A stretch of 64,000 bases of DNA from Porphyromonas sp. COT-290 OH3588. Lineage in GTDB: Bacteria; Bacteroidota; Bacteroidia; Bacteroidales; Porphyromonadaceae. Shown piece by piece: positions 16,186 through 42,926 of the stretch (positions are counted from its first letter, which is position 1; each line of letters begins with the position of its first letter). The translations under genes and the position numbers were made by a program. The notes below the pieces were generated by a model, which was given only the letters and a program-made list of their open reading frames with translations, made no database searches and was not told the origin of the DNA. Where the stretch lies: positions 188,023-252,022 of the forward strand of contig NZ_JRFC01000014.1 in assembly GCF_000769075.1 (NCBI RefSeq), written 5' to 3'.

Positions 16186-16545
16186 TTCGTATAAACATTC
16201 TGTAAAAAAATAACAACAACACTAGCTATCAATTCGGCGATTGTCATACAGCAATCAATCATTTCAATGGGAACATTTTTTAGAATTGGTGGACTAATCT
16301 GCCCAGATCTATCCTACAATCTGTCAAGATTGATGGGAAGAAATGCCAAGCAATAAGCCGAAAATCTATAAAATCGCCTAAGTTCGCAATTTATATTGCT
16401 GGGGAATAGACATTTGTATAGAGGGCGTTTTAGGCAGTTATTTTCATCGCACTAGGGTAAAGGTGTGCCAGCGAGGTCGGACGCCGTGTAGCGCCCGCTA
16501 GGGGGCGAATACGCAATCTACCCCTTTTTTCCGCCTCGGGAAGTA
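16186..16545 (+). repeat. dispersed intergenic repeat, copy A
   Basis: Landmarks shared with copies B and C in the same order: GATTGGTGGACTAATC-like block at 16283-16299, AGATTGATGGGAAGAAATGCC from 16327, AGGCAGTTATTTTC from 16432, GAGGTCGGACGC at about 16473, the imperfect CTAG palindrome GCCCGCTAGGGGGC from 16493, then GAATACGCAATCTACC. Distance from the second GATTGATGGG to the palindrome is 165 bases, as in copy C. The left boundary (GTTCGTATA) is less certain. No open reading frame is conserved. Confidence 0.75.
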
Positions 16546-16652
16546 AATGCCCCAACAATACTCAGAAAACTGATCCAAAATATAAATTATGTAATCCTCG
16601 ACATCTCGCCAGAGTACGTCTAAAATAGTGCGATAAATCTAATTAGTTTTCG

Positions 16653-16660
16653 TATCTTTG
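16653..16660 (+). promoter_or_regulatory. promoter -7 element for the M60 peptidase operon
   Basis: TATCTTTG matches TAnnTTTG 88 bp before the small gene at 16748 and about 110 bp after repeat copy A. The -33 part is not clear. Confidence 0.5.
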
Positions 16661-16747
16661 CAGTTCGAAATAAAAAATTAAGAAGCGAGGCGCTGCATCA
16701 CCCACAGCTATACCTTCGTCCAAATTCTATCATCTCTTACATATAAT

Positions 16748-16912
16748 ATGACATACCAAGAAGGGGCTAGGCATAGCTATGTCGCTCCAGAGACTTATCA
16801 CATCCAGCTCTCAGGGCAAGGGATCAGTCTATTAACTCAAATATCGTATCTCGCCACAATCATAGACGAGGATCTCCTAGTTGATGATTGGGACGAAGAG
16901 GGCGAACTATAA
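16748..16912 (+). CDS. small conserved-type protein upstream of the M60 peptidase (54 aa)
   Basis: An ATG at 16748 opens a 54-codon frame ending TAA at 16910-16912. The product contains SYVAPETYHIQLSGQG and an acidic tail DDWDEEGEL. Short Bacteroidetes proteins with a Y-x-x-P-E start, one amphipathic stretch and an acidic DW end are commonly encoded just before surface lipoprotein genes; their function is unknown. It lies 15 bp before the peptidase gene and after a -7 promoter motif, so it is probably the first gene of that transcript. The function is not recognised. Confidence 0.65.
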   Translation: MTYQEGARHSYVAPETYHIQLSGQGISLLTQISYLATIIDEDLLVDDWDEEGEL

Positions 16913-16927
16913 AACTACAGACCCCGA

Positions 16928-19900
16928 ATGAATACAAAAATCGCAAAGAATACAATGAAAATCAACTCCTTGAGATGCACGACACTGCTCGTCCTCCTGC
17001 TCTCGATATGGGGCTGTACTGCCGAGGATCGTGAGGCCATACTCAGCGACAATGAGGCAGCAGCAACCGCCTCTACGGAGCCCGTATTAATCTCTGTGAC
17101 TACCAATGCCAAGCAGGAGGTAGATGCACTGATGCTCTCACTCGACATTGACCTTGAGGGGGAGGATCTGAGAGCCAATAAATACGAAGAAGACGAAGCT
17201 ACAACGACTCTGAAAAAGTCAGACGTTCGAGCTGAAGAAACGGCCCACTGCATCATCAGGAAAAAGGGCGATCGCTCGGCGACGATCTATGCCGACATCA
17301 CTTGGAAAGGACGCAGTGGCAATCGGCTCAAGCTAGAGAAAGTGCGCCTCCCCTCGGATAAAAAAATAGACCGTGCAGGTCAGTGGTACATAACCGCAAT
17401 CATCGGAGGTAAGAGCTTCGACCTCAGTAACGGACAGCTACGAATGGGAGAGGCTGGCTCGGAGCCGACTTCTCTGCCAGCAGACGGTAGCCTTGATGCC
17501 CCCTATATCTTAGCTTGGACAAGGCTAGAGCTACCTGCCAACAGCCAGACAGCCTTGATCCCAGCGGCGGCTCGCTTCCGCCCCCACGGGACGATCCTTA
17601 GGTTGCAGTTCAATAGCGATATGGCTCAAGACTACAAGGCTATAGGGCTCAAGATATCGACCAATGCTTGGCGAGATACAGGAGTATTCGACCCCATGGC
17701 TATCGAGGACGACGCCCTCGATTCGCCCAATCAGCTCCCTCAGTGGCGTGCAGATGTCACCAATACCGATATCGTGGAGCGGAGGTTCACACTTGCCCCA
17801 GCAGGAGCCTCTACGAACCATAGCCTCGTCTTACCCGCAGGAGCTGGCTGGTCGCCAGAGCGCACGATCTACACTTGGGGTATGCCTACCAATGTAGAGC
17901 AGCCCAACCTAAGCACCAAGATAGAGCTAGAGGTAGAGGCGCTGGAGACCCCACAAGCAGGCGAAATCAATGTCGCCCAGCATGTCGTTACCTACGACAA
18001 GCAGAGGCATCGCCCTCTGAAAATCGGGAGCACCTACAAGCTAAGCAATATCTTGACGAGCGGTCTGATCATCTCAGAGGTCTTCTACGACTATGCTCGA
18101 GAGGAGAACCCCAGCCAGCCACAGAACCGCAACAACTACTCTATCGTCGAGATCTACAACCCCACCACTAGCCCCATAGACCTAGCCGAGTATGCGCTAG
18201 CTAGGGCTATCAACAGCTACTCGGAGGGCTATACCTTCTATGTAGCCAATACCCCTAGAGGACAGAACAACCCCAACACAGCTCTACTACTACCCTTATC
18301 GATCATCTCGGGAGATGCACCCAACAAAGTGCCATTTGGAGGCAATGTAGGTCAAAACTACCCTCGCATGGGCGAGTACGAGGGGGCGTGGTTTCATCGT
18401 TTCTTAGGTAGCCGATCCACAATCCTAGAGCCGGGGAAGACAGTACTCATAGCAGGCCCGGGTTACGCCAAAACACGCAAGAGCCCCAAGAGTAGCATCG
18501 ATGCTTTTGACCGTGCCGTACAGCAAGGCACCCTCCCTGCAACCCTATTTGCAGGGAATAACACCAGCGACCCTAAGTATAGGTCTCTCAAACAAGCCGT
18601 GCAGGATCTAGAAGATGCACAAGCCACCAATCCAAGAGCTGGCGGACAGATCGACTCCGCCTTCAGCAGAGGATATACCCAAGCCTTCGTAGCAGCCGAC
18701 AATGGTATCACACACGAGGGTGGCAATAGATGGCCAGCCGTCCTAGACCTAGCACCCACCGATGGTCTTGTTTTGGTTAGATACAACTCAGACAATCGCT
18801 CGCCCGAGGTAGTAGATGCGGCCGTCCCCGTCCTACAAGGACGAGCAGTAGCTTCGTCCTTCAATCAGCTTCGCTCAACGAGCCTCAACCAAGGCCTCGA
18901 GTTGGAAGATCATATCCAAGACCTCGATGCCGATAGCGACTTGCCTTACTCACTAGTACGCTCTAGAGGCTACAACTTCTCTACCGCACAGATGATTACC
19001 AAGGTGGGTGCTTGGCACTTTGAGCGTAGCGAGAACGGTGGGCGCAAGTCGCTCGGCTCTAGAAACTATGTAGCCGGACGCTCCCCATACGCCTCAACTT
19101 GGGCTGGCTACACCCAGCTCAACAACCCCAAGAACCTCCCCTTCTGGCGAGAGGTATCAGGAGTGAACATCGTACCAGAGCGAGGCTGGAGTAGCACCTC
19201 CGAGGCACAAGCAAATGGGGTGTATAATGACGGATTCGATCGCAAGCAGTCGGCCATCAAGCAGCAGAACAAGATCAAGGTTGCCCGAGCCAAAGCCTCT
19301 TCTGAGCATGCGCACAGCAAGATACCCAATGCAATAGACGGCAACACCAATGGAACTACAGATGCCACCATCTATCATTCTCGCTGGGGACGAAATGATT
19401 TGCCAATTGAGCTAGATTTCATCTTTGAGCAGACCGAGCAAGTCGGCTCGATTACTTACTATCCTCGTCAGGGAGGTAATGACAATGGCAACTTCCAAGA
19501 GGTAGAGATCTTGTACTCAAACGATGGGCAGAACTACACTTCGCTGCAGAGGCACACCTTCAACGGGACGAAAGCTATGCAAGAGCTTGCACTCAAACAG
19601 GTAGTTACCGCTGGAGCTATCCGCATCAAGGTCCTGTCGGGTGTGGGTGGCTATGCTTCGGCCTCAGAGGTAGAGTTCTACCGCTCGGGCTATAATCCTA
19701 GAGCGTATGAGCAGCTAATGGCAGATCTATTCTCCGACAAGGCTTGTACTGTGCTGCGCCCCAACCTCTCACGAGAGCAGATCCTCCAGCACTCCGACCC
19801 ATTCCTCAAGGATATCGCCCTGCGGATGTACGACAGGAAGTATCCTAGAGAGTTCCGCATCGACGACTTCGAGGCCTACCCAGACCCTTGGATACAAGCC

Positions 19901-21454
19901 AACGAGCTCAAGACTTACCCACATTCTGTACATGACAACCCCACGGGTATAGCAGTGAAGAAGGACGAAGTGCTAGTCGTTTTCGTCGGGGATACGCATG
20001 GGCACTCTGGTCTACAACTTAGGATTCAGAACTTGGATAAGCCCAATAGCGACGGCTTCGGTGGAGCTATGTATCCGCTCAAGGAAGGCTTCAATGCAAT
20101 CAAGGTTAGAGAGAAGGGGCTGATCTACGTCAATTATCTGACCAGCACAATGCAGGCTCTTAGCACAGCCAAACCCATCACTATCCACTTCGCCACGGGT
20201 ACAGTCAATGGCTACTTCGACAGCCAGAGGGAGAGCCACCGTGGGCGTTGGCTAGAGCTACTCAGCAGAGCTACGGACCGCTACTTCGACATCATCGGAG
20301 CTCACGCACATATGACCTATGAGACTAGAGTGTTCCGTGGTCTGACCCCAGATGGTAAGGCACTCGCAGACGTGGCAGATAAGATCGTCGTGGCTGAGAT
20401 GGAGCATCTAGGGCTCTACAAATACGACCGAGTACGTAAGAATAGATCTTATATGCATGTGATGTATCATGCCTTTATGTATGCAACGCATTACCATACA
20501 GCCTACGTCCACACTACGATGGAGACGCTAGCAAGCGCACAGAAAATGGAGAGTGCTTGGGGCCCCTACCACGAGATTGGACACACCAATCAGACGCAAG
20601 GCCTCAAGTGGAAGGGTATGACCGAGTGTACGGTCAATATCTTCTCCTTCTATGTGATGTACAATGTCTTCAAGAAACAGACACGTATGATCAATGAGAA
20701 CCGCTACCACGAGGCTTGGAATGGACTATTAAGGCGCAATATCAAATCCCTAAGTGACCAAGAGCCCAATAAGGTTGTGCCCAGTGATAGCCATGCCTCC
20801 AAGACGACCAATGTCTTCGGCAAGCTAGTACCATTCGTACAGCTAGAGCTCTACTTCGGCAACGTGTTAGGCAAGACACCCGCCATACAGACCTCCGACA
20901 AGGGAGGCTTCTATCCAGACCTCTACGAGTACCTCCGTGTCCATGCGACAAACGATGCTACCAAGAGAGCACCGGGCTACGAGCAGAGTGAGTTTGCCCT
21001 CATCGCCTCCAAGGTAGCGGGCTATGACCTGACGGACTTCTTCGACAAGTGGGGCTTCCTCACTCCTGTCGATATGGAGATTGATGATTATGGCAAGGGT
21101 AGGCTCACTGTGACAGAGCAGAGAGGCCAAGAGGTGCGAGAGCAGATCAAGGCGCTCCGTAAGCCTAAGCTCAACGTAGCCCTAGAGTATATTACGGAGA
21201 ACAATCTAGATTTGTACCGCAATCCTCAGCCCATGACGGTCGGCACGATTATCCGCAACAATCGTCAGATCTCCACACAGGGCTTCTCTCGTGTCGTAGC
21301 ATACGAGGTGGCGGATGCTGCCGGAGAGATCCTACACATCGAGTACGGCGACAAGACTTCGTGGACGCTCCCCGCAAGCATAACTTGGACAGCCAGTCAT
21401 CGTATCATCGCTGTTGATGCGACAGGCAAACGCACCCGCCTAAGCGTTAGCTAG
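16928..21454 (+). CDS. M60-type (enhancin-like) metallopeptidase lipoprotein with lamin-tail and F5/8C domains
   Basis: A 1508-residue surface lipoprotein. The signal is TTLLVLLLSIWGC; the start could also be the ATG at 16955, which gives a more usual signal. Domains in order: a beta-rich N-terminal region (about 60-370); a lamin-tail/DUF4876-like domain from about 377 (LIISEVFYDY and SIVEIYNPTTSPIDLAEYAL); a discoidin/F5/8C-type domain at about 786-920 (KIPNAIDGNTNG, PIELDFIFEQTEQVGSITYY); and an M60 peptidase domain with zinc motif HEIGH at 1215-1219 and the second glutamate at about 1233 (MTEC). M60 enzymes cleave O-glycosylated mucins, so the protein probably binds and degrades host glycoprotein outside the cell. 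A perfect terminator follows. Confidence 0.88.
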   Translation: MNTKIAKNTMKINSLRCTTLLVLLLSIWGCTAEDREAILSDNEAAATASTEPVLISVTTNAKQEVDALMLSLDIDLEGEDLRANKYEEDEATTTLKKSDVRAEETAHCIIRKKGDRSATIYADITWKGRSGNRLKLEKVRLPSDKKIDRAGQWYITAIIGGKSFDLSNGQLRMGEAGSEPTSLPADGSLDAPYILAWTRLELPANSQTALIPAAARFRPHGTILRLQFNSDMAQDYKAIGLKISTNAWRDTGVFDPMAIEDDALDSPNQLPQWRADVTNTDIVERRFTLAPAGASTNHSLVLPAGAGWSPERTIYTWGMPTNVEQPNLSTKIELEVEALETPQAGEINVAQHVVTYDKQRHRPLKIGSTYKLSNILTSGLIISEVFYDYAREENPSQPQNRNNYSIVEIYNPTTSPIDLAEYALARAINSYSEGYTFYVANTPRGQNNPNTALLLPLSIISGDAPNKVPFGGNVGQNYPRMGEYEGAWFHRFLGSRSTILEPGKTVLIAGPGYAKTRKSPKSSIDAFDRAVQQGTLPATLFAGNNTSDPKYRSLKQAVQDLEDAQATNPRAGGQIDSAFSRGYTQAFVAADNGITHEGGNRWPAVLDLAPTDGLVLVRYNSDNRSPEVVDAAVPVLQGRAVASSFNQLRSTSLNQGLELEDHIQDLDADSDLPYSLVRSRGYNFSTAQMITKVGAWHFERSENGGRKSLGSRNYVAGRSPYASTWAGYTQLNNPKNLPFWREVSGVNIVPERGWSSTSEAQANGVYNDGFDRKQSAIKQQNKIKVARAKASSEHAHSKIPNAIDGNTNGTTDATIYHSRWGRNDLPIELDFIFEQTEQVGSITYYPRQGGNDNGNFQEVEILYSNDGQNYTSLQRHTFNGTKAMQELALKQVVTAGAIRIKVLSGVGGYASASEVEFYRSGYNPRAYEQLMADLFSDKACTVLRPNLSREQILQHSDPFLKDIALRMYDRKYPREFRIDDFEAYPDPWIQANELKTYPHSVHDNPTGIAVKKDEVLVVFVGDTHGHSGLQLRIQNLDKPNSDGFGGAMYPLKEGFNAIKVREKGLIYVNYLTSTMQALSTAKPITIHFATGTVNGYFDSQRESHRGRWLELLSRATDRYFDIIGAHAHMTYETRVFRGLTPDGKALADVADKIVVAEMEHLGLYKYDRVRKNRSYMHVMYHAFMYATHYHTAYVHTTMETLASAQKMESAWGPYHEIGHTNQTQGLKWKGMTECTVNIFSFYVMYNVFKKQTRMINENRYHEAWNGLLRRNIKSLSDQEPNKVVPSDSHASKTTNVFGKLVPFVQLELYFGNVLGKTPAIQTSDKGGFYPDLYEYLRVHATNDATKRAPGYEQSEFALIASKVAGYDLTDFFDKWGFLTPVDMEIDDYGKGRLTVTEQRGQEVREQIKALRKPKLNVALEYITENNLDLYRNPQPMTVGTIIRNNRQISTQGFSRVVAYEVADAAGEILHIEYGDKTSWTLPASITWTASHRIIAVDATGKRTRLSVS

Positions 21455-21463
21455 ACTTAAACG

Positions 21464-21505
21464 CAAGCGGGGCAGCACCGAATGTAATCGGTGCTGCCCC
21501 GCTTG
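21464..21505. terminator. bidirectional terminator
   Basis: A perfect 18-bp stem (CAAGCGGGGCAGCACCGA and complement) with loop atgtaa lies between the convergent ends of the M60 peptidase gene and the oxoacid oxidoreductase beta gene. Confidence 0.9.
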
Positions 21506-21522
21506 GCTTATATTCTATTGAG

Positions 21523-22539
21523 CTACTTAACCTCCCAATAAGAATCGGTCAGTAGAAGCTCCTCAAGTGTGCGTTGAGACTTCTTGGCTTGTACATCGGC
21601 AATCTGCTGGTGCACGGCTTTTTCGTAAGAGATATCCTGCACATCACGGATCACACCAAGAGCAATAGGTAGCTCACCACCCATCATCGCCAGCATATTG
21701 TGCATCGTCACGTCTGGTTCGTGCGCGTCGTGTACAAGTACATCGTCGATCGTGTAGCCATCTTCGCCTATTGTAACGGCCTTTAGCTTAAGCCCGTCGA
21801 GCACGAGTCCCTTGTTCCTATCTTTACCAAAGATCATCTTCTCGCCATGCTGGAGCATGATCGTACGGTCATCTCGTACGTCCTTCATGGCATAGGAGCG
21901 ATGAATACCATCGTTGAAGATCACACAATTGACCAGCACCTCCACCACTGATGCACCTTCGTGCTTAGCACTCTCCTGCATACAGTACTGTAGATTTTTC
22001 ATATCAACATCAATAGCTCTGGCGAAGAACTTTCCTCGTGCTCCCAAGCAAAGCTCGGCTGGAATGAAAGGGTCCTCAACCGTACCGTAGGGAGAGCTCT
22101 TGGAGATAAAACCTCTGTCGCTCGTAGGTGAGTACTGCCCCTTCGTCAAGCCGTAGATGCGGTTGTTGAAAAGAATGATATTCAGATTGACATTACGACG
22201 GATCGCATGAATAAAGTGATTACCACCGATAGCCAAGCTGTCACCATCACCCGAGATAACCCAAACGCTTAGGTCGGGATTGGCAGTCTTGACGCCCGTG
22301 GCAATAGCCGCTGCACGGCCATGGATCGTATGGAAGCCATACGTATTCATATAGTAAGGCAAGCGGGACGAACAGCCAATACCCGAGATAACCGCTGTCC
22401 TATGAGTAGGAATACCGACCTCAGCCATCGCCTTGTGTAGTACCGCCAACACTGCGTGGTCACCGCAACCGGGACACCAGCGTACGTACTGATCGCTCTT
22501 GAAATCTTTTGCTTCTAGCTTACACATATTCGTATCCAT
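21523..22539 (-). CDS. korB: 2-oxoacid:ferredoxin oxidoreductase beta subunit (thiamine-diphosphate subunit)
   Basis: A 338-residue beta subunit. The cluster/TPP-binding start is VRWCPGCGDHAVLAVLHKAM, followed by SGIGCSSRLPYYMNTYGFH; the thiamine-diphosphate/Mg motif is GDGDSLAIGGNHFIHAIRRN. An internal ATG four codons in (MCKLEAKD) is a possible alternative start. It works with the fused alpha subunit encoded 4 bp upstream on the transcript to decarboxylate a 2-oxoacid, reduce ferredoxin and form acyl-CoA. This two-subunit type is distinct from the multi-subunit one at the left edge. Substrate not determined. Confidence 0.92.
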   Translation of the reverse strand: MDTNMCKLEAKDFKSDQYVRWCPGCGDHAVLAVLHKAMAEVGIPTHRTAVISGIGCSSRLPYYMNTYGFHTIHGRAAAIATGVKTANPDLSVWVISGDGDSLAIGGNHFIHAIRRNVNLNIILFNNRIYGLTKGQYSPTSDRGFISKSSPYGTVEDPFIPAELCLGARGKFFARAIDVDMKNLQYCMQESAKHEGASVVEVLVNCVIFNDGIHRSYAMKDVRDDRTIMLQHGEKMIFGKDRNKGLVLDGLKLKAVTIGEDGYTIDDVLVHDAHEPDVTMHNMLAMMGGELPIALGVIRDVQDISYEKAVHQQIADVQAKKSQRTLEELLLTDSYWEVK

Positions 22540-22543
22540 GGTT

Positions 22544-24400: not shown

Positions 24401-24482
24401 AACTTCTTAATTTAAACTTGTCGTTTAAGTGCCTACATAGCTATTGAGCCAGCAGAGCAATGTACTTTACATAACTACGATG

Positions 24483-24514
24483 CAAAGCTATGTATTTACA
24501 TATACCTAGACAAA
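24483..24514 (-). promoter_or_regulatory. promoter of korA-korB
   Basis: On the minus strand TTTG (24511-24514), a 20-bp spacer and TAGCTTTG (24483-24490) match the Bacteroidetes -33/-7 consensus exactly. It is one of the best matches in the window. Confidence 0.8.
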
Positions 24515-24684
24515 TATTTTCACAACAAAATTCATAAATCAGATCACTCTCTCAAGGGGTTAATAAATATCCATCTCAATATCCACAGAGAGGGGTCGCA
24601 GATATAAAGATTATTGGGCCGATTGAAGCTGATGAAGACTGATAATATGGCGAAGGGAGGAGGACAACTTACCTACATATATAA
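24515..24684. other. intergenic stretch with no recognised gene
   Basis: AT-rich spacer between the korAB promoter and the exoA terminator. I see no open frame with protein character and no copy of the dispersed repeat. Confidence 0.5.
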
Positions 24685-24723
24685 ATAGGTTGTGCTCGGG
24701 CTTAACACTCGAGCACAACCTAT
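24685..24723 (-). terminator. terminator after exoA
   Basis: A 14-bp perfect stem (ATAGGTTGTGCTCG and complement) with a 12-base loop starts 18 bp after the exoA stop on the minus strand. Confidence 0.8.
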
Positions 24724-24740
24724 CATAGCAGCATGATACA

Positions 24741-25984: not shown

Positions 25985-25986
25985 CA

Positions 25987-28996: not shown

Positions 28997-29098
28997 TTAC
29001 GTCTCCTGCTTGGTCATGATAACTAGATCCTGATAGTTGGGTGGCACTTCATCTCCTCTCCAGCGGCCAAAAAACGATCGTCTTGTGTACTCATTCGT
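28997..29098 (-). pseudogene. possible 3'-end remnant of a lost minus-strand gene
   Basis: Read on the minus strand, an open stretch of 33 codons ends in TAA at 28997-28999. The peptide (SFFGRWRGDEVPPNYQDL, ending MTKQET) has normal protein-like composition but no start codon and no upstream continuation. The terminator-type hairpin begins 30 bp downstream, as expected for the end of a real gene. The open stretch stops where the dispersed repeat copy B begins. The family was not recognised, and a chance open stretch remains possible. Confidence 0.35.
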
Positions 29099-29475
29099 CT
29101 ACTTTCTTATTAAGGAGTGTTAATAGGTTTGTAAAGAATTTCGAGAAACAAGCATAAGATTTATAAAGGACGGCGGGACTATCTAGAAAAATTGATGGGA
29201 AGACTTCCTCCGATTGGTGGACTAATCCCTTGAGATGTGTCCACCAATCTTAGTAGATTGATGGGAAGAAATTCTTCAAAATGTGATACAATTGCATATA
29301 CACAGCCGAGAATACATCATAAATACCTTTATATAAGCACATTACAAATGCCCGTTTTAGGCGAGTATTTTGTCTAGGCTGGGACTAAGTGCCCAAATGA
29401 GGTCGGACGCAACAGAGAGCCTCCTAGAGGGCAAATACGAGGTGTGCCACCTCCTACCCGAGAGGGGCGGATTGA
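29094..29475 (+). repeat. dispersed intergenic repeat, copy B
   Basis: Begins TTCGTCTACTTT..TTAAGGAGTGT (shared with copy C). Next come ATTGATGGGAAGA at about 29191, the hairpin arms GATTGGTGGAC (from 29212) and GTCCACCAATC (to 29249), and a second GATTGATGGGAAGAAAT from 29256. Then AGGCGAGTATTTTG is at 29359, GAGGTCGGACGC at 29399, GCCTCCTAGAGGGC from 29419 and AAATACG after it. From its left end to the second GATTG is 162 bases, the same as in copy C. Confidence 0.8.
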
Positions 29476-29597
29476 CACTCAAACAAGCCCTCAATCGTTA
29501 CAGAGTGTAAACTCCTGAATTATCTCAACTAGACAGCAAAGTATTGGGAGGTGTAGGACTTACATCAGTCAGATTTTGGTTTTTCGCCCAAAGTTCG

Positions 29598-34230: not shown

Positions 34231-34233
34231 ACG

Positions 34234-35834: not shown

Positions 35835-35839
35835 CTATC

Positions 35840-37519
35840 CTAGTCGTGGTCGAGGATCTCGGTGATTGGGCGGCCGATGCAACCGCTTGGTAACTGAGTT
35901 TTGAGCATAAAGGCTAGAGTAGCTGCTATATCGGTGATATGTACCTCACGATACAGATGACCAGCTTCTACACCATGCCCCATGAAGATGAGGGGGATAT
36001 GCGTATCATATGGCGACCACACAGCGTGCGAGGTACCCTGAGCAGCCTTATCACCCCTGTGGCTATACCACCCGGGGTGTAGGATGACGAAGATAGAACC
36101 GCTACGGTTATGGTTGTAACCATTGACAATACGAGTGCGTATGTCCTCTGGTAGAGAAGCCGAGCCTGCACGATCGGATTGCACGGCATAGGCAACCCCG
36201 GGCATATTGGCCAGCTCTCTGCAAATAGCATCGTAGAGCTTCTGTCGGTTGGCACCCAGCTCATCAATTTTGGCTTCGTCAAGGAATACCTGATAGTTGG
36301 CGATGTCAATGAAAACCTCGGCATCTGCTCCGAGCTGTGCTTGGCAAATTTCACTCACCTTTTGGCGAGCAATGTCCACTCTCCAAGCTCTCCCCGGAAG
36401 TTTCTTGTCCTCTAAGAAAGTCAGATTGTGCGCTGCAGCATGGTCGGCAGTGAGGAAGAACAGATAGCCATCTTTACCATACCGCCCATCAAGGTAGTCA
36501 AAGAACTCCTTGAGCTCTTGGTCGAGTCGCAGATAGGTATCCTCGATCTCCATAGAATAGGTCGCATAGCGATGACCGATATAGTCGGTAGATGAGAGGC
36601 TAACAGCAAGGAAGTCTGTATCGCCGTCCTCACGAGTCCCGAGCTCTTCGCCCTCGATCGCTGCTTTTGCCATATCAAGCGTAAGAGTATTACCCATAGG
36701 AGTTGTGCGAATGACGCCCAAGCCAAACTCCTTCTCTAGCTTACGTGTATCTAGTGGTAGCGTCGCCTTGGCTACCTCCTTCCATGGCTGCTCAAAGTTG
36801 TTTTCATCTGCCACGCTCTCCACATAGCTACGTTTGTTGTGTAGTGGCTTCCAGCCGTCACGCAGATACTTCTTGGCTAGTTTACGGTTGTTGAAGCGCT
36901 CTACCCAGCGAGGGAGCTTATCCATGTAATAAGTGCTGGTAATGAAGTTGCCACTCTGATCGTCGAACCAATAAGCTCCATCGGCCGAATGTCCTGCTGG
37001 TAGGATAGCTCCTCGATCCTTGAGGGCAACGCCGATTACTTTGCTACGGAAGTTTGTGGCAAGCTTGAGCTCGTCTGTAATAGTAGTGCTGAGCATATTG
37101 CGAGGCGACATCTGCCCACTCTTGCCTTCGTCTGCCCCTACGGTTCGCACCGCTTCGTCCTGAGTACAGTAGAGCGACTTACACTGGCTGTAGAAGTTGT
37201 TGCCTGCAATACCGTGAATGCTTGGCACACTACCTGTATAGACGGAGGCATGGCCGATAGCAGTAACCGAGGGGATATAGTTGATGCGCGTGTTGTGGCA
37301 GTTGAAACCTTCGTTAAGTAGCCGCTTGAAGCCACCCTCTACGAAACGGTTATTGTAGCGATATAGGTAGTCCCAGCACATCTGATCTACCACCATGCCC
37401 ACCACAATCGCTGGGCGATCGGGCTTATTGTGCTCTAGCTTCTTGCCTGCGAAGGCGGGTAGCGTAGCGGTCAGAATGGTCAATGCGATGAGCCAACTAC
37501 GCGATTTGTTCGTCTTCAT
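35840..37519 (-). CDS. PafA-type alkaline phosphatase (exported)
   Basis: A 559-residue protein with signal ALTILTATLPAFAG. The alkaline phosphatase superfamily pattern is visible: GMVVDQMCWDYLYRY (first metal Asp), the nucleophile region YIPSVTAIGHASVYTGS with a threonine as in PafA, SSTDYIGHRYA and FLTADHAAAHN for the second metal site, and a late GTSHAVWSPYDTHIPL. PafA enzymes hydrolyse phosphate monoesters in the periplasm without phosphate repression. Sits between prmA and an acyltransferase gene in a long minus-strand run. Confidence 0.88.
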   Translation of the reverse strand: MKTNKSRSWLIALTILTATLPAFAGKKLEHNKPDRPAIVVGMVVDQMCWDYLYRYNNRFVEGGFKRLLNEGFNCHNTRINYIPSVTAIGHASVYTGSVPSIHGIAGNNFYSQCKSLYCTQDEAVRTVGADEGKSGQMSPRNMLSTTITDELKLATNFRSKVIGVALKDRGAILPAGHSADGAYWFDDQSGNFITSTYYMDKLPRWVERFNNRKLAKKYLRDGWKPLHNKRSYVESVADENNFEQPWKEVAKATLPLDTRKLEKEFGLGVIRTTPMGNTLTLDMAKAAIEGEELGTREDGDTDFLAVSLSSTDYIGHRYATYSMEIEDTYLRLDQELKEFFDYLDGRYGKDGYLFFLTADHAAAHNLTFLEDKKLPGRAWRVDIARQKVSEICQAQLGADAEVFIDIANYQVFLDEAKIDELGANRQKLYDAICRELANMPGVAYAVQSDRAGSASLPEDIRTRIVNGYNHNRSGSIFVILHPGWYSHRGDKAAQGTSHAVWSPYDTHIPLIFMGHGVEAGHLYREVHITDIAATLAFMLKTQLPSGCIGRPITEILDHD

Positions 37520-37558
37520 TGTCTTTAGTCGTGTTATAGTGAATTTACTTCTAATTGC

Positions 37559-38422
37559 TTAACCCTTACATAGCTCCAGTAGTGTCCAGCGGTTGCGGCT
37601 CGTCTGGCTGACGAAGCTCAACCCCAGAGTGCGGCCACGCTCGATGAGCAGAGGTGCGTCCTCTTCGTAGAAACCGCTGAGGATGACCCTCGCACCAGAA
37701 GCCATAACCTCTGCGTATGCTGGCAGGTCTTGGAGCAAGATGTTACGAGTGATGTTGGCTAGTACCAGATCGTATGGGCCTCTTCCCTCTAGACTTGTCG
37801 CATCACCTTGTAGTGCTTCGTCAATATGAACGGCATTGAGGTTGGCATTCTCTAGAACGTTTTGATACGCCCATTCGTCTATATCTATAGCCGTGAGGCT
37901 ACGAGCCCCTTGCTTCAAGGCGAGAATACCTAGGATACCTGTACCACAGCCCATATCTAGGACACGTAGCCCCTCGATGTCGTGCTCGAGCAGATAGGCA
38001 ATGATGAGCGAGGTCGTCTCGTGATTGCCCGTTCCGAACGCCATCTTGGGTTGTATGATGACTTCCGTACGGATAGACGGATCTGGTGCGTGAAACGGAG
38101 CACGGATCATACACAAGTTATCGCCTAGGACGATGGGCTGGAAGTAATGCTTTTCCCACTCTTCGTTCCAATTGACCTCGGGGATTATCTCCATTTCGTA
38201 ATCAAATCGAATGCCCTGCCAAGGCTGCTCTTCTAGAGCCGTGGCTATGCTGCTCTCGTCAATCAGTTCTGTAGGTATGTAGGCCTTGAGGCTGTCACCC
38301 TCGACCTCGAAGCTATCGAAACCTAGTTCGCCGAGCGAAGCGGCTAGCAAGTCGTAAACGACTTCTAGATCCACCCCCTCGGCTTGGTTGGTCGCACGGA
38401 ATGTATACCCTGTATATTGCAT
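37559..38422 (-). CDS. prmA: ribosomal protein L11 methyltransferase
   Basis: A 287-residue SAM-dependent methyltransferase. NWNEEWEKHYFQPIVLG, IIQPKMAFGTGNHETTSL and the SAM motif VLDMGCGTGILGILALKQGA are the PrmA signatures, followed by DLVLANITRNILLQ. It trimethylates ribosomal protein L11. I choose the ATG at 38422 (MQYTGYTF) because the frame upstream (open to 38539) would overlap hemL and lacks family character. It starts 17 bp after the hemL stop. Confidence 0.94.
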   Translation of the reverse strand: MQYTGYTFRATNQAEGVDLEVVYDLLAASLGELGFDSFEVEGDSLKAYIPTELIDESSIATALEEQPWQGIRFDYEMEIIPEVNWNEEWEKHYFQPIVLGDNLCMIRAPFHAPDPSIRTEVIIQPKMAFGTGNHETTSLIIAYLLEHDIEGLRVLDMGCGTGILGILALKQGARSLTAIDIDEWAYQNVLENANLNAVHIDEALQGDATSLEGRGPYDLVLANITRNILLQDLPAYAEVMASGARVILSGFYEEDAPLLIERGRTLGLSFVSQTSRNRWTLLELCKG

Positions 38423-38439
38423 TGCTAATTGTCTGTGAT

Positions 38440-39741
38440 TTAGTCTTTGTCCCCAAAGGTTTGCTCCAAGGCTATGGCCATGGCCTGAGCAGTACGCTCT
38501 AGATCGGCCTCGGTGTGTGCAATAGAGAGGAACATACACTCAAACTGCGAGGGCGGCAGATAGATACCCTGCTCCAGCATGCTGCGGAAGTAGCGAGTAT
38601 ACTGCTCCGTATTGGCCTCCTTGGCGTGGGCGTTGCTACGCACCTCGCCAGAGTGGAAGAATAGCGTGGAGAGGGAGCCGACTCGGTTGTATGAAATATG
38701 ACCTGCATATCGCTCTAGTAGTGGCTGGATAAGTGCTTCTAGATATGCTCCCTTGCGCTCCAGCTCGTCGTAGAAATTGGAGACCGAGAGTTCTTGGAGC
38801 ATAGCGATGCCAGCCGATAGCGCTAGCGGATTGCCCGAGAGTGTACCAGCTTGATACACGGGGCCTAGTGGCGACAAGTAGTCCATGATGTCGGCTCGTC
38901 CGCCGAAAGCTCCTACTGGTAGTCCGCCACCAATAATCTTACCGAGGCAAGTCAAGTCGGGGCGAATCTGGCACAGCTGCTGAGCACCTCCCTTGGCCAC
39001 ACGAAAGCCGCTAATGACTTCGTCGAAAATGAGCAAAACACCAGACTGCTCGGTGAGCAAACGTAGCTCGGCGAGGAAGCCTACCTCAGGGAGTATCAGC
39101 CCCATATTGCCCATAATAGGCTCGAGGATTACGGCAGCGACCTCGTCGGGATAGAGCTCCAGCAGGCGTCGCACGCTGGCAATATCATTGTATGTAGCGA
39201 CTAACGTATTCTCAGCTGTCTGCTGGGTAACGCCTGCGCTACCCGCTTGTCCAAAGGTCGCTAGCCCAGAACCAGCTTGTATCAAGAAGCTATCGGCGTG
39301 ACCATGGTAGCACCCCTCAAACTTGATGATACGGCTACGCCCTGTAAATCCTCTCGCTAACCTAATCGCACTCATCGTAGCCTCGGTACCAGAATTGACC
39401 ATGCGTACCTTCTCAATCGAGGGGAAGAAGCGACAGATGAGCTCTGCCATCTCTACCTCTCGCTCGTTACAAGCCCCATAGCTCGTCCCTCGCTCCAGCT
39501 CACCAGTAATGGCTGCTTGTATCTTGGGATTGGAGTGCCCGACGATCAGAGGCCCCCAAGAGCTGATAAAGTCGATGTATTCATTGCCGTCTACGTCCCA
39601 TATATGGCTTCCTAGACCTCGCTCTATATATAATGGTGTAAGGCCAACCGAGCGAAAGGCTCTTACGGGGCTATTAACGCCACCGGGAATCACACGCTGA
39701 GCTCGCTCGAAGAGCTCCTGCGAACGCTTGATATGTTGCAT
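38440..39741 (-). CDS. hemL: glutamate-1-semialdehyde 2,1-aminomutase
   Basis: A 433-residue class III PLP aminotransferase-type enzyme. RVIPGGVNSPVRAFR at the N-terminus, MVNSGTEATMSAIRLARGFT, the PLP Asp in LIFDEVISGFR and the PLP lysine in LGKIIGGGLPVGAFGG all match HemL. It makes 5-aminolevulinate for the C5 tetrapyrrole route. hemD is elsewhere in the window (60132-60881). First gene of the long minus-strand run, with a -7 box 60 bp upstream. Confidence 0.95.
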   Translation of the reverse strand: MQHIKRSQELFERAQRVIPGGVNSPVRAFRSVGLTPLYIERGLGSHIWDVDGNEYIDFISSWGPLIVGHSNPKIQAAITGELERGTSYGACNEREVEMAELICRFFPSIEKVRMVNSGTEATMSAIRLARGFTGRSRIIKFEGCYHGHADSFLIQAGSGLATFGQAGSAGVTQQTAENTLVATYNDIASVRRLLELYPDEVAAVILEPIMGNMGLILPEVGFLAELRLLTEQSGVLLIFDEVISGFRVAKGGAQQLCQIRPDLTCLGKIIGGGLPVGAFGGRADIMDYLSPLGPVYQAGTLSGNPLALSAGIAMLQELSVSNFYDELERKGAYLEALIQPLLERYAGHISYNRVGSLSTLFFHSGEVRSNAHAKEANTEQYTRYFRSMLEQGIYLPPSQFECMFLSIAHTEADLERTAQAMAIALEQTFGDKD

Positions 39742-39801
39742 CTTAATCCTTTAGATTAGTTCATCGCTAGTGCCACCCTAGTCTGAGCGCACTCACAGCT
39801 A

Positions 39802-39809
39802 CAAAGATA
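39802..39809 (-). promoter_or_regulatory. promoter -7 element for the hemL operon
   Basis: On the minus strand TATCTTTG matches TAnnTTTG 60 bp before the hemL ATG. The -33 region has no clear TTTG. Confidence 0.5.
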
Positions 39810-39858
39810 CCTAAAATCTAGGCTTCCTCCCGATTGACATCCTCCTCCGATATAGAGG

Positions 39859-39901
39859 GATCGCATAGCTAGGCTCAAACGATTGGGCTGGCTATGCGAT
39901 C
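39859..39901 (-). terminator. terminator after fabK
   Basis: GATCGCATAGC and GCTATGCGATC are perfect 11-bp arms that extend imperfectly inward. The hairpin starts 65 bp after the fabK stop and ends before the hemL promoter. Confidence 0.65.
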
Positions 39902-39965
39902 TGTTGAGGGCATCTATCTCGTCGCACCGGTCAAGGACACTTGGCGAGGCAATAGATTCAATGGA

Positions 39966-40910
39966 CTAGAGCTCTGGAGTCAGGCGAGAGGAGGCAGCTT
40001 GATAGCCCGAGATAAGCTCACGGAAGACATCTGCCACAGACTCCTCCTGCTGCGTGAGGGCTACGCTCTGCCCGATCTCTAGCATACCCTCTGTAAGATC
40101 TCCCTCGAAGATACCACGCTTGGCACGTCCCTTACCTTGTAGCTCTCGGAGTGCCTCTACTGTTGCGCCTGCGGCCTCGGCTCTAGCTACCTGCTCGTAG
40201 AAGTCGTTTTTGAGCAGACGTGTGGGACTAATAGACTTGAGCGAAAGCATGGTACCGCCCTCGCCCGTGGCACGACACAGACGTTTGAACTCCTCGCTGG
40301 CAGAGCTCTCGGTCGTCATAGCGAAGCGTGTGCCGATCTGTACGCCATCTGCACCCAGAGCTAGGGCAGCCGCTACACTATCGCCCTGTGAGATACCGCC
40401 AGCAGCCACGACTGGGATTGTAACAGCTCGTGCGACGGCAGGTATGAGGCACATGGTCGTCGTTTCGTCACGGCCATTGTGTCCGCCTGCCTCAAAGCCT
40501 TCGGCAATCACAGCATCTACACCAGCCTCTTGGCTCTTGAGGGCAAACTTGGTACTGGCCACCACATGTAGCACCTTACAGCCCGCAGCCTTGAGCTTAG
40601 CCGTGTAGGTCTTGGGGTTGCCGGCCGAGGTTACCACGACTGGCACCTGCTCCTCGATGATGATGTCGATGATCGCATCTAGCTCTGGGTAGAGCATGGG
40701 CACATTCACCCCGAAGGGCTTATCGGTGGCAGCCTTGCATTTGCGGATGTGCTCACGCAGGTTGTCTGGGTGCATGGAGCCAGCACCGATGAGGCCTAGT
40801 CCACCCTCACGGCTCACGGCAGAGGCGAGCTTCCAGCCGCTACACCAGACCATCCCGCCAGAGATAATCGGATAGCGTATGCCAAGTAATTGGCAGAGTC
40901 TATTTGCCAT
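39966..40910 (-). CDS. fabK: FabK-type enoyl-ACP reductase / nitronate monooxygenase family
   Basis: A 314-residue FMN-binding TIM-barrel protein. IRYPIISGGMVWCSGWKLAS, the core EGFEAGGHNGRDETTTMCLI with its conserved His, VVAAGGISQGDSVAAALALG and GADGVQIGTRFAMT fit the 2-nitropropane dioxygenase/FabK family. FabK reduces enoyl-ACP in fatty-acid synthesis and is the known enoyl reductase of P. gingivalis; sequence alone does not fully exclude a nitronate monooxygenase. It is third in an operon, 18 bp after a LuxR-type regulator gene. Confidence 0.82.
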   Translation of the reverse strand: MANRLCQLLGIRYPIISGGMVWCSGWKLASAVSREGGLGLIGAGSMHPDNLREHIRKCKAATDKPFGVNVPMLYPELDAIIDIIIEEQVPVVVTSAGNPKTYTAKLKAAGCKVLHVVASTKFALKSQEAGVDAVIAEGFEAGGHNGRDETTTMCLIPAVARAVTIPVVAAGGISQGDSVAAALALGADGVQIGTRFAMTTESSASEEFKRLCRATGEGGTMLSLKSISPTRLLKNDFYEQVARAEAAGATVEALRELQGKGRAKRGIFEGDLTEGMLEIGQSVALTQQEESVADVFRELISGYQAASSRLTPEL

Positions 40911-40928
40911 AGTTGTATTTATCTAAGT

Positions 40929-41543
40929 TTAGTTTTTTTGATTGATTTCGTTGAGCTCTACAAGCTTATTCATTATGGCGTAGATCGTCAGACCGCTAGG
41001 GCTATGGATCTGTAGCTTCTTGGTGATGTTGCGTCGGTGTGTGATGACGGTGTGGGTAGAGAGGAAGAGCGCACTAGCGATCTCTTTGTTGGTCATACCC
41101 TTGACCACGCACACAACGATCTCACGCTCTCGAGGTGTCAGGCTCTGCGAATCCAAAGAGGGTGTCCCCTGCGCCTCTTCCTCGACACGCACCAAGCGGT
41201 CGAATAGGTCTGCGATCTGCTGCACCGAGTCGGTGATGCGCAGGACGTCGTCATACTCACGCAGGAGCGTTTCGTCTGTGGTTCCATAGCTCAGAGCGAC
41301 GAACTTGGCGACCTCTCTCTGAGCCGAGAAGTAAGTCTGTGGGCTAATACCAGAGAGTAGCGGATTGAGAATAAAAATATCTGCTGTGATCAGACCTATG
41401 GCTTCGCTCCAATCCCTACGAAAATCCTCTACCAGATGGAGCACCTGTACTTTGTAGCGTGCCAACTTCTTGAGTTGTGCCTCAAGTCCACTGCGTATAA
41501 TGGGGCATGGCTCGGCGATGGCTACACGTATCGCTGTCGTCAT
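40929..41543 (-). CDS. LuxR-type regulator with a degenerate receiver domain (CdhR-like)
   Basis: A 204-residue protein. The C-terminal LuxR helix-turn-helix is clear: SLTPREREIVVCVVKGMTNK, EIASALFLSTHTVITHRRNI. The N-terminal half has receiver-like topology (IRVAIAEPCPIIRSGLEAQL), but the acidic pair is reduced (AEPC) and the expected phospho-acceptor position reads FILNPLLSG, with Asn instead of Asp. Regulation by phosphorylation is therefore unlikely. P. gingivalis CdhR (PG1237) is a LuxR-type regulator next to a hypothetical gene; the hemerythrin-like gene 21 bp upstream here makes orthology plausible but unproven. Confidence 0.78.
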   Translation of the reverse strand: MTTAIRVAIAEPCPIIRSGLEAQLKKLARYKVQVLHLVEDFRRDWSEAIGLITADIFILNPLLSGISPQTYFSAQREVAKFVALSYGTTDETLLREYDDVLRITDSVQQIADLFDRLVRVEEEAQGTPSLDSQSLTPREREIVVCVVKGMTNKEIASALFLSTHTVITHRRNITKKLQIHSPSGLTIYAIMNKLVELNEINQKN

Positions 41544-41564
41544 AATGTCATGGTTTTACATCGG

Positions 41565-42299
41565 TTATTTGATCTGTGGCGATATGAGTCCGTCCTCTAG
41601 AGCCTCTATATAGGGCGTGAAGATGTTGTCTTCGATGAGGTTGTGAGCAGCTAGGTCTGCCTCGCTAGTAAAGATATCGTGCAGTACATTGTTGAGCTCG
41701 TATCCGCTGGGAGCAGGGTAGTACTTGATGAGCAAATTCTTGAGCTCGGTAATTTTCAGCTCAATCTGATCGTGACGCTTGCTAAACACCCTGATGCTGT
41801 AGCGACTATCACGCTCGCCTTTCGCCAACTTACGAGCATAGGGGAAGACCGTTTTGTCTTCGTAGTTCATGTGCTTGCGCACCTCCTCTACATATTCGTC
41901 GAAGAAATTGCGGATCGCCAAAGCCACCTCGTTTGGGCAATTGGAGAGGGCCGAGAGGAGCTGTTGACGTAGCAAAGGCAACCTGAAGTCGAGGAAGTAG
42001 GAGTGAGAGTTGGAGAGATAGCTCAGCAGGCTATGAATGTCGAGCGCAGAGAGCTGCTCCACACAAGGCTTCTCTTCGGGATGCACCGAGCTATTGAGCA
42101 GTAAGAGCAGGGTTGGTGCATCAACCTCGTGCTCCTCGCAGACCTGCCCAATCGTCTTCTCACCGAAACCCAGCGGGATCCCAAAGCGAGTAATGATGAG
42201 CAGAAGTGGGAAGTTGTCGCAGATGAGGTCGCTCATCTTCGTGTTTGCTCCGAAAGGTTTGGTTACAGCTTTCGCACTACCATATTTGTATAGATTCAT
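41565..42299 (-). CDS. hemerythrin-like (DUF542/ScdA-related) protein
   Basis: A 244-residue helical cytoplasmic protein. It has a ScdA/DUF542-like N-terminal helical part (KMSDLICDNFPLLLIITRFG, GEKTIGQVCEEHEVD) and a hemerythrin-type C-terminal region with spaced His/Glu: SHSYFLDFRLP, VRKHMNYEDKTVFPYARKL, KRHDQIELKITELK and LAAHNLIEDNIFTPYIEAL. A di-iron site that senses oxygen or nitric oxide, or helps repair iron centres, is possible. First gene of the operon with the LuxR-type regulator and fabK, behind an excellent promoter and repeat copy C. Confidence 0.78.
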   Translation of the reverse strand: MNLYKYGSAKAVTKPFGANTKMSDLICDNFPLLLIITRFGIPLGFGEKTIGQVCEEHEVDAPTLLLLLNSSVHPEEKPCVEQLSALDIHSLLSYLSNSHSYFLDFRLPLLRQQLLSALSNCPNEVALAIRNFFDEYVEEVRKHMNYEDKTVFPYARKLAKGERDSRYSIRVFSKRHDQIELKITELKNLLIKYYPAPSGYELNNVLHDIFTSEADLAAHNLIEDNIFTPYIEALEDGLISPQIK

Positions 42300-42359
42300 A
42301 TTTTGATAAGTTTGAATTTTGTCTTGAGCTATATTATTTGTTGTAATAACGAATGATTA

Positions 42360-42391
42360 CAAATATAGTTCATTATCTCCTGCAGGGCAAA
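42360..42391 (-). promoter_or_regulatory. promoter of the hemerythrin-LuxR-fabK operon
   Basis: On the minus strand TTTG (42388-42391), 20-bp spacer, TATATTTG (42360-42367): an exact consensus match about 60 bp before the ATG. Confidence 0.8.
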
Positions 42392-42524
42392 TGGCACACT
42401 CATAGGATAATCAAAACCTTAGCACCGCTCTCCTTTTTTGACCTGATCTCATGCCTAGGCAGAGCATCATTGCAATGGGAAAGCGCCGAATTAGGGTTAC
42501 ATAAATTTACACTTTCGATGCACA

Positions 42525-42926
42525 TTTGCTCCTCTAGCAAGGGGTGTATCGCTAGAGAGGGCAAAAATCGGCAGACTGCGTATTTGCCTTCTAGAAGGCT
42601 CTACACGCCATCTAGCCTCATTGCAGCCCCTTGGGTGCAGAAGTACGAAAACAACCGCCTTAAAAGCGACAAGCACAACAGACTGATTACAAGAAATATA
42701 AACAAACACTGTAATCATTTGAATACACTTGAGGCTCACTTCTTGGCATTTCTTCCCATCAATCTCTGGAGATCAGTGGGCACATCTCGGAGCACTAACC
42801 CACCAATCTGAGCAGCTCTTCCCATCAATCCTCCAGAGAGACCCAACCAGTCTTCACAAATCACCTCTCCATTACTTCAAATCTCTTAGTAAATCCTTTA
42901 CACTCCTTAACTAAAAAGTAGACGAA
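42525..42926 (-). repeat. dispersed intergenic repeat, copy C
   Basis: On the minus strand it begins TTCGTCTACTTTTTAGTTAA followed by GGAGTGT. Then come GATTGATGGGAAGAGC, GATTGGTGGG with its pairing partner CCCACTGATC, and AGATTGATGGGAAGAAATGCC (G at 42764). AGGCGGTTGTTTTC follows from 42660, the perfect palindrome GCCTTCTAGAAGGC at 42586-42599, and AAATACGCAGTCTGCC after it. Motif spacings equal those of copies A and B within two bases. Plus-strand frames crossing this region are not conserved between copies and are not taken as genes. Confidence 0.8.

What the first reader, a model, noticed from the sequence alone, without database searches (positions are those of the whole stretch)
16186..42926. 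A family of about 380-bp non-coding repeats with fixed internal spacing (copies A, B, C)
Copies at 16186-16545 (+), 29094-29475 (+) and 42525-42926 (-) share blocks in the same order: TTCGTCTAC start, GATTGATGGGAAG, GATTGGTGGAC, second GATTGATGGGAAGAAAT, AGGCxGTTATTTT, GAGGTCGGACGC and a CTAG-centred palindrome followed by AAATACG. Distances are nearly constant: left end to the second GATTG is 162 bases in B and C, and second GATTG to the palindrome is 165, 163 and 165. Sequence between blocks has diverged strongly, including a spacer of about 100 bases kept in length but not in sequence. No shared reading frame exists. It could be an old mobile element (MITE-like) or a structured regulatory RNA. 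I do not recognise it as one of the described P. gingivalis MITEs or BrickBuilt repeats, but could not check.
Basis: seen in the sequence. Interest (0 to 1): 0.8.

Follow-up and report, generated by a model that had tools for sequence, protein, structure and literature searches.

The report
Evenly spaced species-specific intergenic DNA elements
An unnamed bacterium of the gum-microbe genus Porphyromonas carries about 150 copies of a non-coding DNA element of fixed length, evenly spread between its genes and built around four binding-site-like units 22 bases apart; other species tested have arrays with the same 22-base step but other site sequences, and gene order between two sister species is broken at nearly every element that could be tested.

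Summary
The repeat family is real and much larger than reported. The genome (2.29 Mb, Porphyromonas) holds about 150 copies, roughly one per 14 kb, spaced far more evenly than chance. Copies are ~425 bp with few indels although mean identity is only 53-57%. They do not code, show no covarying RNA helix, and lack terminal inverted repeats or clear target duplications. They sit upstream of promoter-like motifs, mostly between divergent genes. The core is four sites on an exact 22-bp step. All seven other genus genomes that I sampled also show 22-bp-step intergenic arrays, six of them with other, mostly palindromic sites. The sister species G023 shares the element, but 31 of 32 copies seen carry another array 'dialect'. 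Gene order between the sisters is broken at 9 of 10 testable elements against 5 of 119 other regions. Best reading: chromosome-wide docking sites for a cooperative DNA-binding protein with fast-evolving specificity, which also act as rearrangement junctions. The protein and the function are not identified. A MITE or a structured RNA is not supported.

The parts
16263..16587 (+). Copy A, part that fits the family profile (positions 102-425 of 425); diverged 5' part from about 16169
   Evidence: nhmmer of the family profile, C6:204285-204609, 249.8 bits; sequence
29091..29511 (+). Copy B, whole element (profile 2-424)
   Evidence: C6:217113-217533, 338.3 bits; sequence
42505..42928 (-). Copy C, whole element (profile 3-425)
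   Evidence: C6:230527-230950 minus, 288.8 bits; sequence
29190..29205 (+). Copy B array site 1 (ATTGATGGGAAG type)
   Evidence: read; first unit of the 22-bp step
29212..29227 (+). Copy B array site 2 GATTGGTGGACTAATC
   Evidence: read; 22 bp after site 1
29234..29249 (-). Copy B array site 3, inverted (GATGTGTCCACCAATC on the plus strand); in L008 and L015 this unit is direct
   Evidence: read; alignment
29256..29271 (+). Copy B array site 4 GATTGATGGGAAGAAA, the best-conserved unit
   Evidence: read; alignment
16262..16343 (+). Copy A array: four units starting at 16262, 16284, 16306, 16328 (22-bp step)
   Evidence: read
42749..42830 (-). Copy C array: four units starting (minus strand) at 42830, 42808, 42786, 42764 (22-bp step)
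   Evidence: read
29353..29439 (+). Copy B 3' conserved half: CGTTTTAGGC, GAGGTCGGACGC, GCCTCCTAGAGGGC and CAAATACG blocks
   Evidence: conservation
16653..16660 (+). TAnnTTTG (-7-like promoter motif) between copy A and the downstream gene
   Evidence: read; motif found toward the gene in 81 of 106 element-gene gaps, 12 of 106 in the reverse control

Best explanation
Chromosome-wide cis-acting docking elements. A cooperative, probably dimeric DNA-binding protein (not identified) is inferred to occupy four 16-bp sites placed every 22 bp (two helical turns) inside each element. Further conserved blocks at fixed distances are inferred to contact the same or other proteins, so the whole ~425-bp stretch forms one nucleoprotein complex and tolerates substitutions in spacers but hardly any change of length. 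Complexes stand upstream of promoters about every 14 kb and are inferred to act as domain boundaries or anchors of the chromosome. The binding specificity changes between species and the sites follow, giving dialects. Ectopic exchange between elements spreads a dialect and leaves them as junctions of chromosome rearrangement. SHOWN: copy number, length, spacing, context, the 22-bp step, dialects, synteny breaks at elements, one element kept under constraint over its whole length in both sisters, part-chimeric elements. INFERRED: the protein, its cooperativity, the boundary or anchor role, and the exchange mechanism.
For: 148 places in 2.29 Mb. Spacing mean 14.0 kb, CV 0.52 over 123 intervals; C23 CV 0.35 against 0.96 for random points; more even than random choices of the same kinds of intergenic region (C6 P 0.006, C23 0 of 5000, C13 P 0.002). 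The one 68-kb gap contains a conjugative-transposon-type island (integrase, TraJ, TraM, DUF4138); taking out ~51 kb leaves 17.3 kb. 46 of 80 divergent, 29 of 656 co-directional and 3 of 80 convergent regions carry one. -7-like motifs lie between element and gene in 81 of 106 gaps (12 in reverse control), no strand bias inside elements (17 and 17 of 82). Length 419-426 nt in 32 copies at 57% mean identity. Pair alike throughout (G000 C6:650732 / G023 L149): identity 0.63 at the least and 0.93 at the most conserved third of columns, one gap mismatch. Intergenic 22-bp direct peak: G000 68 against ~6, G011 93/~4, G022 47/~2, G023 8/~2; G020 17/0.7, G041 39/0.6, G017 14/1.4, G003 34/0.5. Dialects: 14 of 21 species-diagnostic columns fall in the array (94 of 425 columns); 31 of 32 G023 and 78 of 79 G000 copies follow their species. 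Synteny broken at 9 of 10 testable element regions against 5 of 119 others (Fisher P 9e-10). Of 32 genes that flank G023 elements and have a G000 orthologue in hand, 24 have it within 900 bp of a G000 element.
Against: No binding protein found: only one ParB_N protein, so no Noc-like paralogue, and the few low-identity syntenic genes in the part at hand offered no candidate. No expression, binding or contact data. Strong constraint and spread would also fit a signal for DNA uptake or exchange. Even spacing and preference for divergent regions are shown for G000; 16 G011 arrays have CV 0.75 and lie in 13 co-directional and 3 divergent regions; 18 within-contig intervals in G023 have CV 0.38 (from a capped list). 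The G023 22-bp peak is small. Length is partly fixed by extending profile matches to the model ends; one search is the independent measure. Diagnostic columns were picked from the same sequences. No divergent region without an element was testable for synteny, so 'divergent' and 'element' are not separated there (the 2 co-directional element regions were both broken). Three of four orthologous pairs are orthologous only in part. Flank side was kept in 16 and switched in 8 cases, which simple in-register crossing-over does not give.
Confidence: 0.45

Rival explanations
1. DNA-uptake or DNA-exchange signal. The arrays are species-specific marks that favour uptake or recombination of own DNA, like the DUS dialects of Neisseriaceae; biased exchange spreads and keeps them, spaces them evenly and leaves breakpoints near them.
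For: Species dialects with single foreign-type copies, even spacing, absence from an island of conjugative-transposon type, exchange inside elements. Neisseriaceae show eight DUS dialects, and ICEs there were found by atypical DUS distribution (PMC3630211 passages; PMC7371117 abstract and outline).
Against: A 425-bp composite element with internal spacing rules and ~150 copies is unlike a short signal with thousands of copies. Strong preference for promoter regions and fixed length over 425 bp are not needed for uptake. No uptake protein was tested.
Confidence: 0.17
2. Non-autonomous mobile elements (MITE-like) that favour upstream regions, with each species invaded by its own family.
For: Dispersed copies in both orientations (79 plus, 69 minus); orientation to flanks switched in 8 of 24 cases between sister species; species-specific families, some with roughly 76-92% similar copies (G017, G003); mean longest 4-9-bp flank match slightly above control (1.59 against 1.13).
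Against: No TIR (best 12-mer between ends 8.71 against 8.62 shuffled, 101 elements) and flank repeats of >=6 bp in 1.3% of elements against 2.6% of controls. 79 of 82 copies cover at least 300 of 425 positions. Near-constant length and block conservation at an orthologous site. Even spacing. The same 22-bp step in families of other sequence.
Confidence: 0.2
3. Operators of a global transcription regulator: the array is an upstream activating or silencing site of about 150 operons, like scattered phage stoperators (comparison recalled).
For: Position upstream of -7-like motifs; 124 gene 5' ends but 36 gene 3' ends face elements; 16-bp palindromes 22 bp apart resemble cooperative repressor operators (recalled).
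Against: Spacing more even than random choices of the same region types; a 425-bp fixed architecture goes beyond an operator; sharing of flanking genes with arrays in the distant G011 is weak (6 of 14 against 10 of 50).
Confidence: 0.15
4. Structured non-coding RNA made from every copy.
For: Conserved blocks and an inverted repeat GATTGGTGGAC..GTCCACCAATC, two of whose six predicted pairs change on both sides in some copies; a hairpin whose arms change together exists in the G041 family.
Against: No covarying helix above the shuffled null (the few top-scoring column pairs are not complementary), consensus -3.8 kcal/mol with 6 pairs in 264 columns; no Rfam match; the inverted repeat is explained by one array site lying in reverse, which is direct in L008 and L015.
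Confidence: 0.03

Closest known systems
BrickBuilt and other P. gingivalis MITEs (MITE239, MITE464/PgRS, MITE700)
   Same: Intergenic, dispersed repeat families of Porphyromonas; BrickBuilt and PgRS hold short tandem units (PMC4596501).
   Different: 23- or 41-nt tandem units (BrickBuilt without spacers), around 10-20 copies, TIRs like those of IS5-family elements, variable length in BrickBuilt; here four separate 16-bp sites on a 22-bp step, no TIR, fixed length, ~150 copies.
DNA uptake sequence dialects of Neisseriaceae
   Same: Species-specific dialects spread over a whole genome, atypical in ICEs (PMC3630211, PMC7371117).
   Different: Short single motifs in thousands of copies; here a 425-bp composite element in ~150 copies at promoter regions.
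Chromosome-organising site families (Noc/NBS, SlmA/SBS, MatP/matS, parS; recalled)
   Same: Palindromic sites of about 13-20 bp scattered along a chromosome and bound by one protein.
   Different: Single sites, not 22-bp-step arrays in a 425-bp element; no second ParB_N protein here.
Iteron arrays of plasmid origins and abutting 22-bp TnsB sites of Tn7 ends (recalled)
   Same: Several sites repeated every ~22 bp.
   Different: Here ~150 chromosomal copies with no TIR or clear target duplication; I did not search for an initiator or transposase gene tied to the copies.

Membership tests
MITE | Terminal inverted repeats | tested here: not met
   best 12-mer match between the 60-nt ends 8.71, shuffled 8.62, 101 elements
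MITE | Target-site duplication | tested here: not met
   >=6-bp flank repeat in 1.3% of elements, 2.6% of shifted controls; mean longest match 1.59 against 1.13
MITE | Empty sites among close relatives | not testable with these tools
   one genome per species; synteny is broken at 9 of 10 testable elements
BrickBuilt | 23-nt tandem unit without spacer, variable number | tested here: not met
   22-bp step, four units with 6-bp spacers; BrickBuilt as described
Rfam family / structured RNA | Covariance-model match or covarying helices | tested here: not met
DNA uptake sequence | Preferred uptake of DNA that carries the motif | not testable with these tools
   needs an uptake assay
DNA uptake sequence | Genome-wide species dialect | tested here: met
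   31 of 32 G023 and 78 of 79 G000 copies follow species type; diagnostic columns chosen from the same sequences; about half of G000 and 0.5 Mb of G023 seen
DNA uptake sequence | Short motif in very high copy | tested here: not met
   ~425 bp, ~150 copies against thousands of DUS copies
Noc / ParB-family sites | A second ParB-family protein to bind them | tested here: not met
   one ParB_N match in the genome, C13:17342
Chromosome-organising site family | Even chromosome-wide spacing | tested here: met
   G000; not shown in G011 (CV 0.75, 15 intervals)
Chromosome-organising site family | Cognate protein bound in vivo | not testable with these tools
   no ChIP or pull-down data

The most novel reading that the evidence does not exclude
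Porphyromonas chromosomes carry a genus-wide marking system: a cooperative DNA-binding protein with fast-changing specificity and up to about 150 elements built on a constant 22-bp step. Protein and sites switch dialect together, and the marked points are the joints at which the chromosome is divided into modules (~14 kb in this species) and reshuffled between species.
Probability: 0.3. Interest if true: 0.95.

Novelty: categorically new. Interest (0 to 1): 0.85.

Why it matters
If the reading holds, a common bacterial genus organises its chromosome with composite elements whose geometry is constant but whose site sequence is species-specific, and gene order evolves in modules set by them. That would give a handle on bacterial chromosome domains, on co-evolution of a DNA-binding protein with ~150 sites at once, and on genome rearrangement in Porphyromonas. 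It makes direct tests possible: which protein binds the array, and what happens when elements are removed.

Tried and rejected
Coding gene: stops in all frames of 32 copies. Structured RNA. TIR, TSD. Replication-direction signal: 79 plus and 69 minus copies, both strands mixed along C6. Terminus-avoiding site family: the 68-kb gap contains an island of conjugative-transposon type with lower GC; where the real terminus lies was not settled. ParB/Noc paralogue. Binding protein beside the one foreign-dialect copy of each species: an LRR protein with a secretion tail, a lyase and a TIR-domain protein, none a DNA-binding family. Low-identity syntenic genes as candidate binder: four seen, none convincing. 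Mobile or viral origin: no match of copy B in 50,697 phage or 72,556 plasmid records, nor of one exact degenerate pattern in viral contigs or genome contigs; the source genome and near ones may be left out there. Shared array positions with the distant genome G011: weak. P. gulae: 0 arrays in 6 intergenic regions of 20 kb, inconclusive. Literature: searches listed nothing that I recognise as this family or as 22-bp-step arrays as a genus feature; [quoted passage not shown] Seen: PMC4596501 abstract, outline, section 5, section 7 part 1 of 2; PMC5771137 and PMC3630211 passages; PMC7371117 abstract and outline; the rest search listings only.
Full report
1. The observation. The three copies are there as described. 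Within 1.2 Mb fetched as stretches, a full-length profile finds 82 elements above 60 bits; 79 of 82 cover at least 300 of 425 positions, the other three being a contig-end piece and two shorter pieces. Of 65 weaker matches 62 overlap an element (mostly the array matching itself in reverse), so there is no population of decayed fragments. Between the same alignment columns 32 copies measure 419-426 nt although mean pairwise identity is 56.7%; over 79 copies it is 53.3%.

2. What it is not. All 32 copies have stops in all six frames. RNAalifold gives 6 pairs and -3.8 kcal/mol, all in the array's inverted repeat; a mutual-information scan finds no helix above column-shuffled alignments; Rfam has no match on the copies. 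Element ends share no more than shuffled ends; flank repeats of 6 bp or more are no commoner than in shifted controls, though the mean longest match is slightly higher (1.59 against 1.13). No match of copy B in phage or plasmid records.

3. Anatomy. Four sites stand exactly 22 bp apart (ATTG at alignment columns 3, 25, 47, 69 of A2). Around the array lie a 5' block (GTTAAGGAGTGTAAA), a middle block, a strongly conserved 3' half (CGTTTTAGGC, AAGTGCCCAAACGAGGTCGGACGC, TAGAGCCTCCTAGAGGGCAAATACG) and a 3' end (CAACATTCTGAAA..TAAAAT.TAAAT), with spacers that keep length but not sequence.

4. Place in the genome. Mean spacing is 14.0 kb, CV 0.52 over 123 intervals; for C6 and C23 it is 0.65 and 0.35 against 0.98 and 0.96 for random points. 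Drawing at random from intergenic regions of the same orientation types does not give this evenness (P 0.006, 0 of 5000, 0.002 for C6, C23, C13). The one very large gap (68 kb; the next are 34 and 30 kb) holds an integrase, TraJ, TraM and DUF4138 genes of a conjugative-transposon-type island; subtracting about 51 kb leaves 17.3 kb and C6 CV 0.42. With a crude open-reading-frame gene call, 46 of 80 divergent regions, 29 of 656 co-directional and 3 of 80 convergent ones carry an element (78 of 82 elements could be classed). 44 of 52 divergent regions longer than 560 bp have one. Between element and gene start, 81 of 106 gaps hold TAnnTTTG pointing to the gene, 12 of 106 in the reverse control; inside elements the motif shows no strand bias (17 and 17 of 82). 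Elements therefore stand behind promoter-like motifs.

5. The genus. Of 26 genus genomes only G000 and G023 carry this sequence family at E <= 1e-6; marginal matches of 17-21 bits in a few other genomes, among them P. gulae and a close MAG, could be remote relatives or chance. But intergenic self-comparison showed other families in G011 and G022, and these too contain arrays with a 22-bp step: TGAGGGATATCCCTCA in G011 (16 loci in 200 kb) and ATTTTAGTTAAAACAC in G022 (4 loci); with either motif no other step from 18 to 26 gives any locus at the same score. In G011 the arrays are less even (CV 0.75) and lie in 13 co-directional and 3 divergent regions. A motif-free count of similar 16-mers by distance peaks at 22 in the intergenic DNA of all eight genomes examined, weakly in G023. 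Site sequences differ: CCACGTGG in G017 and G020, TTCCnnnnGGAA-like sites in G020, GATnTATATAnAGATC in G041, GACCnATATnGGTC and AAGCTATATAGCTT in G003. Arrays were found in 5 of 24, 6 of 27, 6 of 36 and 8 of 25 intergenic regions of G020, G041, G017 and G003 (of the six in G041 one is a near-exact tandem repeat and others have different motifs). Controls: G000 coding DNA has 23 at distance 22 against 12-19 at other distances (17-29) that are not multiples of 3; 76 loci of other genomes, mostly UvrA coding DNA and so a weak control, have 17 against 4-18; four Porphyromonas UvrA loci (19 kb) have 9 against a mean of 0.6. Only 20 kb of P. gulae and 20 kb of one genome of another family were seen, without arrays in 6 and 7 regions.

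6. The sister species. G023 orthologues have a median 92.6% protein identity to G000. Adjacent gene pairs could be judged at 129 intergenic regions: at 10 with an element, order was kept in 1 and broken in 9; at 119 without, kept in 114 and broken in 5. 205 more pairs were undetermined, largely because only half of G000 was at hand. One of the nine rests on a 64% match that may be a paralogue, one (L138) has an uncalled reading frame in between, and no divergent region without element was among the 119. Of 61 gene flanks of 32 G023 elements 32 had an orthologue in hand; 24 of these lie within 900 bp of a G000 element. In these 24 the side of the element is kept in 16 and switched in 8; in the 8 further away it would be 3 and 5. 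Parts of elements are inherited separately: the 5' part of g44_40525 is rank 1 of 79 with C6:669854 whose 5' flank it shares, its middle and 3' parts are not; the 5' part of L144_4033 is rank 1 with C6:570238; the 3' part of L138 is rank 1 with C23:65719. L149 and C6:650732 are alike throughout (rank 1-2 in all parts), with identity 0.63, 0.70 and 0.93 in the least, middle and most conserved thirds of columns and one gap mismatch. Pooled over four pairs, three of them orthologous only in part, the figures are 0.48, 0.63 and 0.87 against 0.34, 0.52 and 0.77 for unrelated pairs. For most same-flank pairs tested the elements themselves are no more alike than unrelated ones, so elements turn over faster than their neighbours.

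7. Dialects. 21 columns separate the two species' consensus; 14 lie in the 94 array columns. By 13 array columns 31 of 32 G023 copies are of G023 type and one (L138) of G000 type; 78 of 79 G000 copies are of G000 type and one (C6:650732) matches the G023 type at 21 of 21 columns. L144_4033 keeps both flanks of C6:570238 but has the other dialect, so at least one site changed dialect in place.

8. Mechanism. Constant step, changing palindromes, conserved spacing and constraint point to a nucleoprotein complex whose protein changes specificity (inferred). Even spacing, absence from an ICE-like island and placement behind promoters point to a chromosome-scale role such as boundary or anchor (inferred). 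Chimeric elements and synteny breaks point to ectopic exchange or replacement at elements (partly shown). The main rivals are an uptake or exchange signal, a mobile element, and a global regulator's operator; none is excluded.

9. Known relatives. It fails TIR and TSD tests for a MITE and differs from BrickBuilt in unit, spacer, length and copy number. It works most like a dialect system such as DUS or a chromosome-organising site family, but is not shown to belong to either. The host is a Porphyromonas species without a name here; its UvrA is 73% identical to those of Porphyromonas sp. COT-239 OH1446 and of MAG S17M_Sa_38.

Noticed in passing
G000 C6:480422-527360 (L100-L102): Conjugative-transposon-type island (integrase, topoisomerase, TraJ, TraM, DUF4138) free of elements; its removal restores normal element spacing.
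   Followed up: partly
L289, L290, L291 (G041, probably P. gingivalis ATCC 33277 by recalled size): Three ~310-bp intergenic copies, 71-75% alike, with a 22-bp-step GATnTATATA array and a 3' hairpin GAGGCAC..GTGCCTTA whose two arms change together between copies.
   Followed up: partly
L290 around 5366 (G041): Near-exact 22-bp tandem repeat GAGCTATTAGGACGACGTTACC in an intergenic region, possibly one of the 22-nt direct repeats reported for W83.
   Followed up: no
L159:13606-17514 (G011): A 3.9-kb intergenic region full of ~120-bp repeats in both orientations, shared with other intergenic regions, next to a 22-bp-step array.
   Followed up: no
L171-L177 (G022): A ~188-bp intergenic repeat 95-98% identical in several places, a probable young MITE distinct from the arrays.
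   Followed up: no
L138:2632-3681 (G023): Gene with a CAP12/Pycsar-type TIR domain next to the only G000-dialect element among the 32 G023 copies examined.
   Followed up: no
G000 C23:145032-196355: Five successive elements much more alike (76-89%) than the family mean (53%), near a change of GC skew.
   Followed up: partly
window 16928-21454: 1508-aa protein with M60 peptidase, F5/8 type C and lamin-tail domains just downstream of copy A.
   Followed up: no
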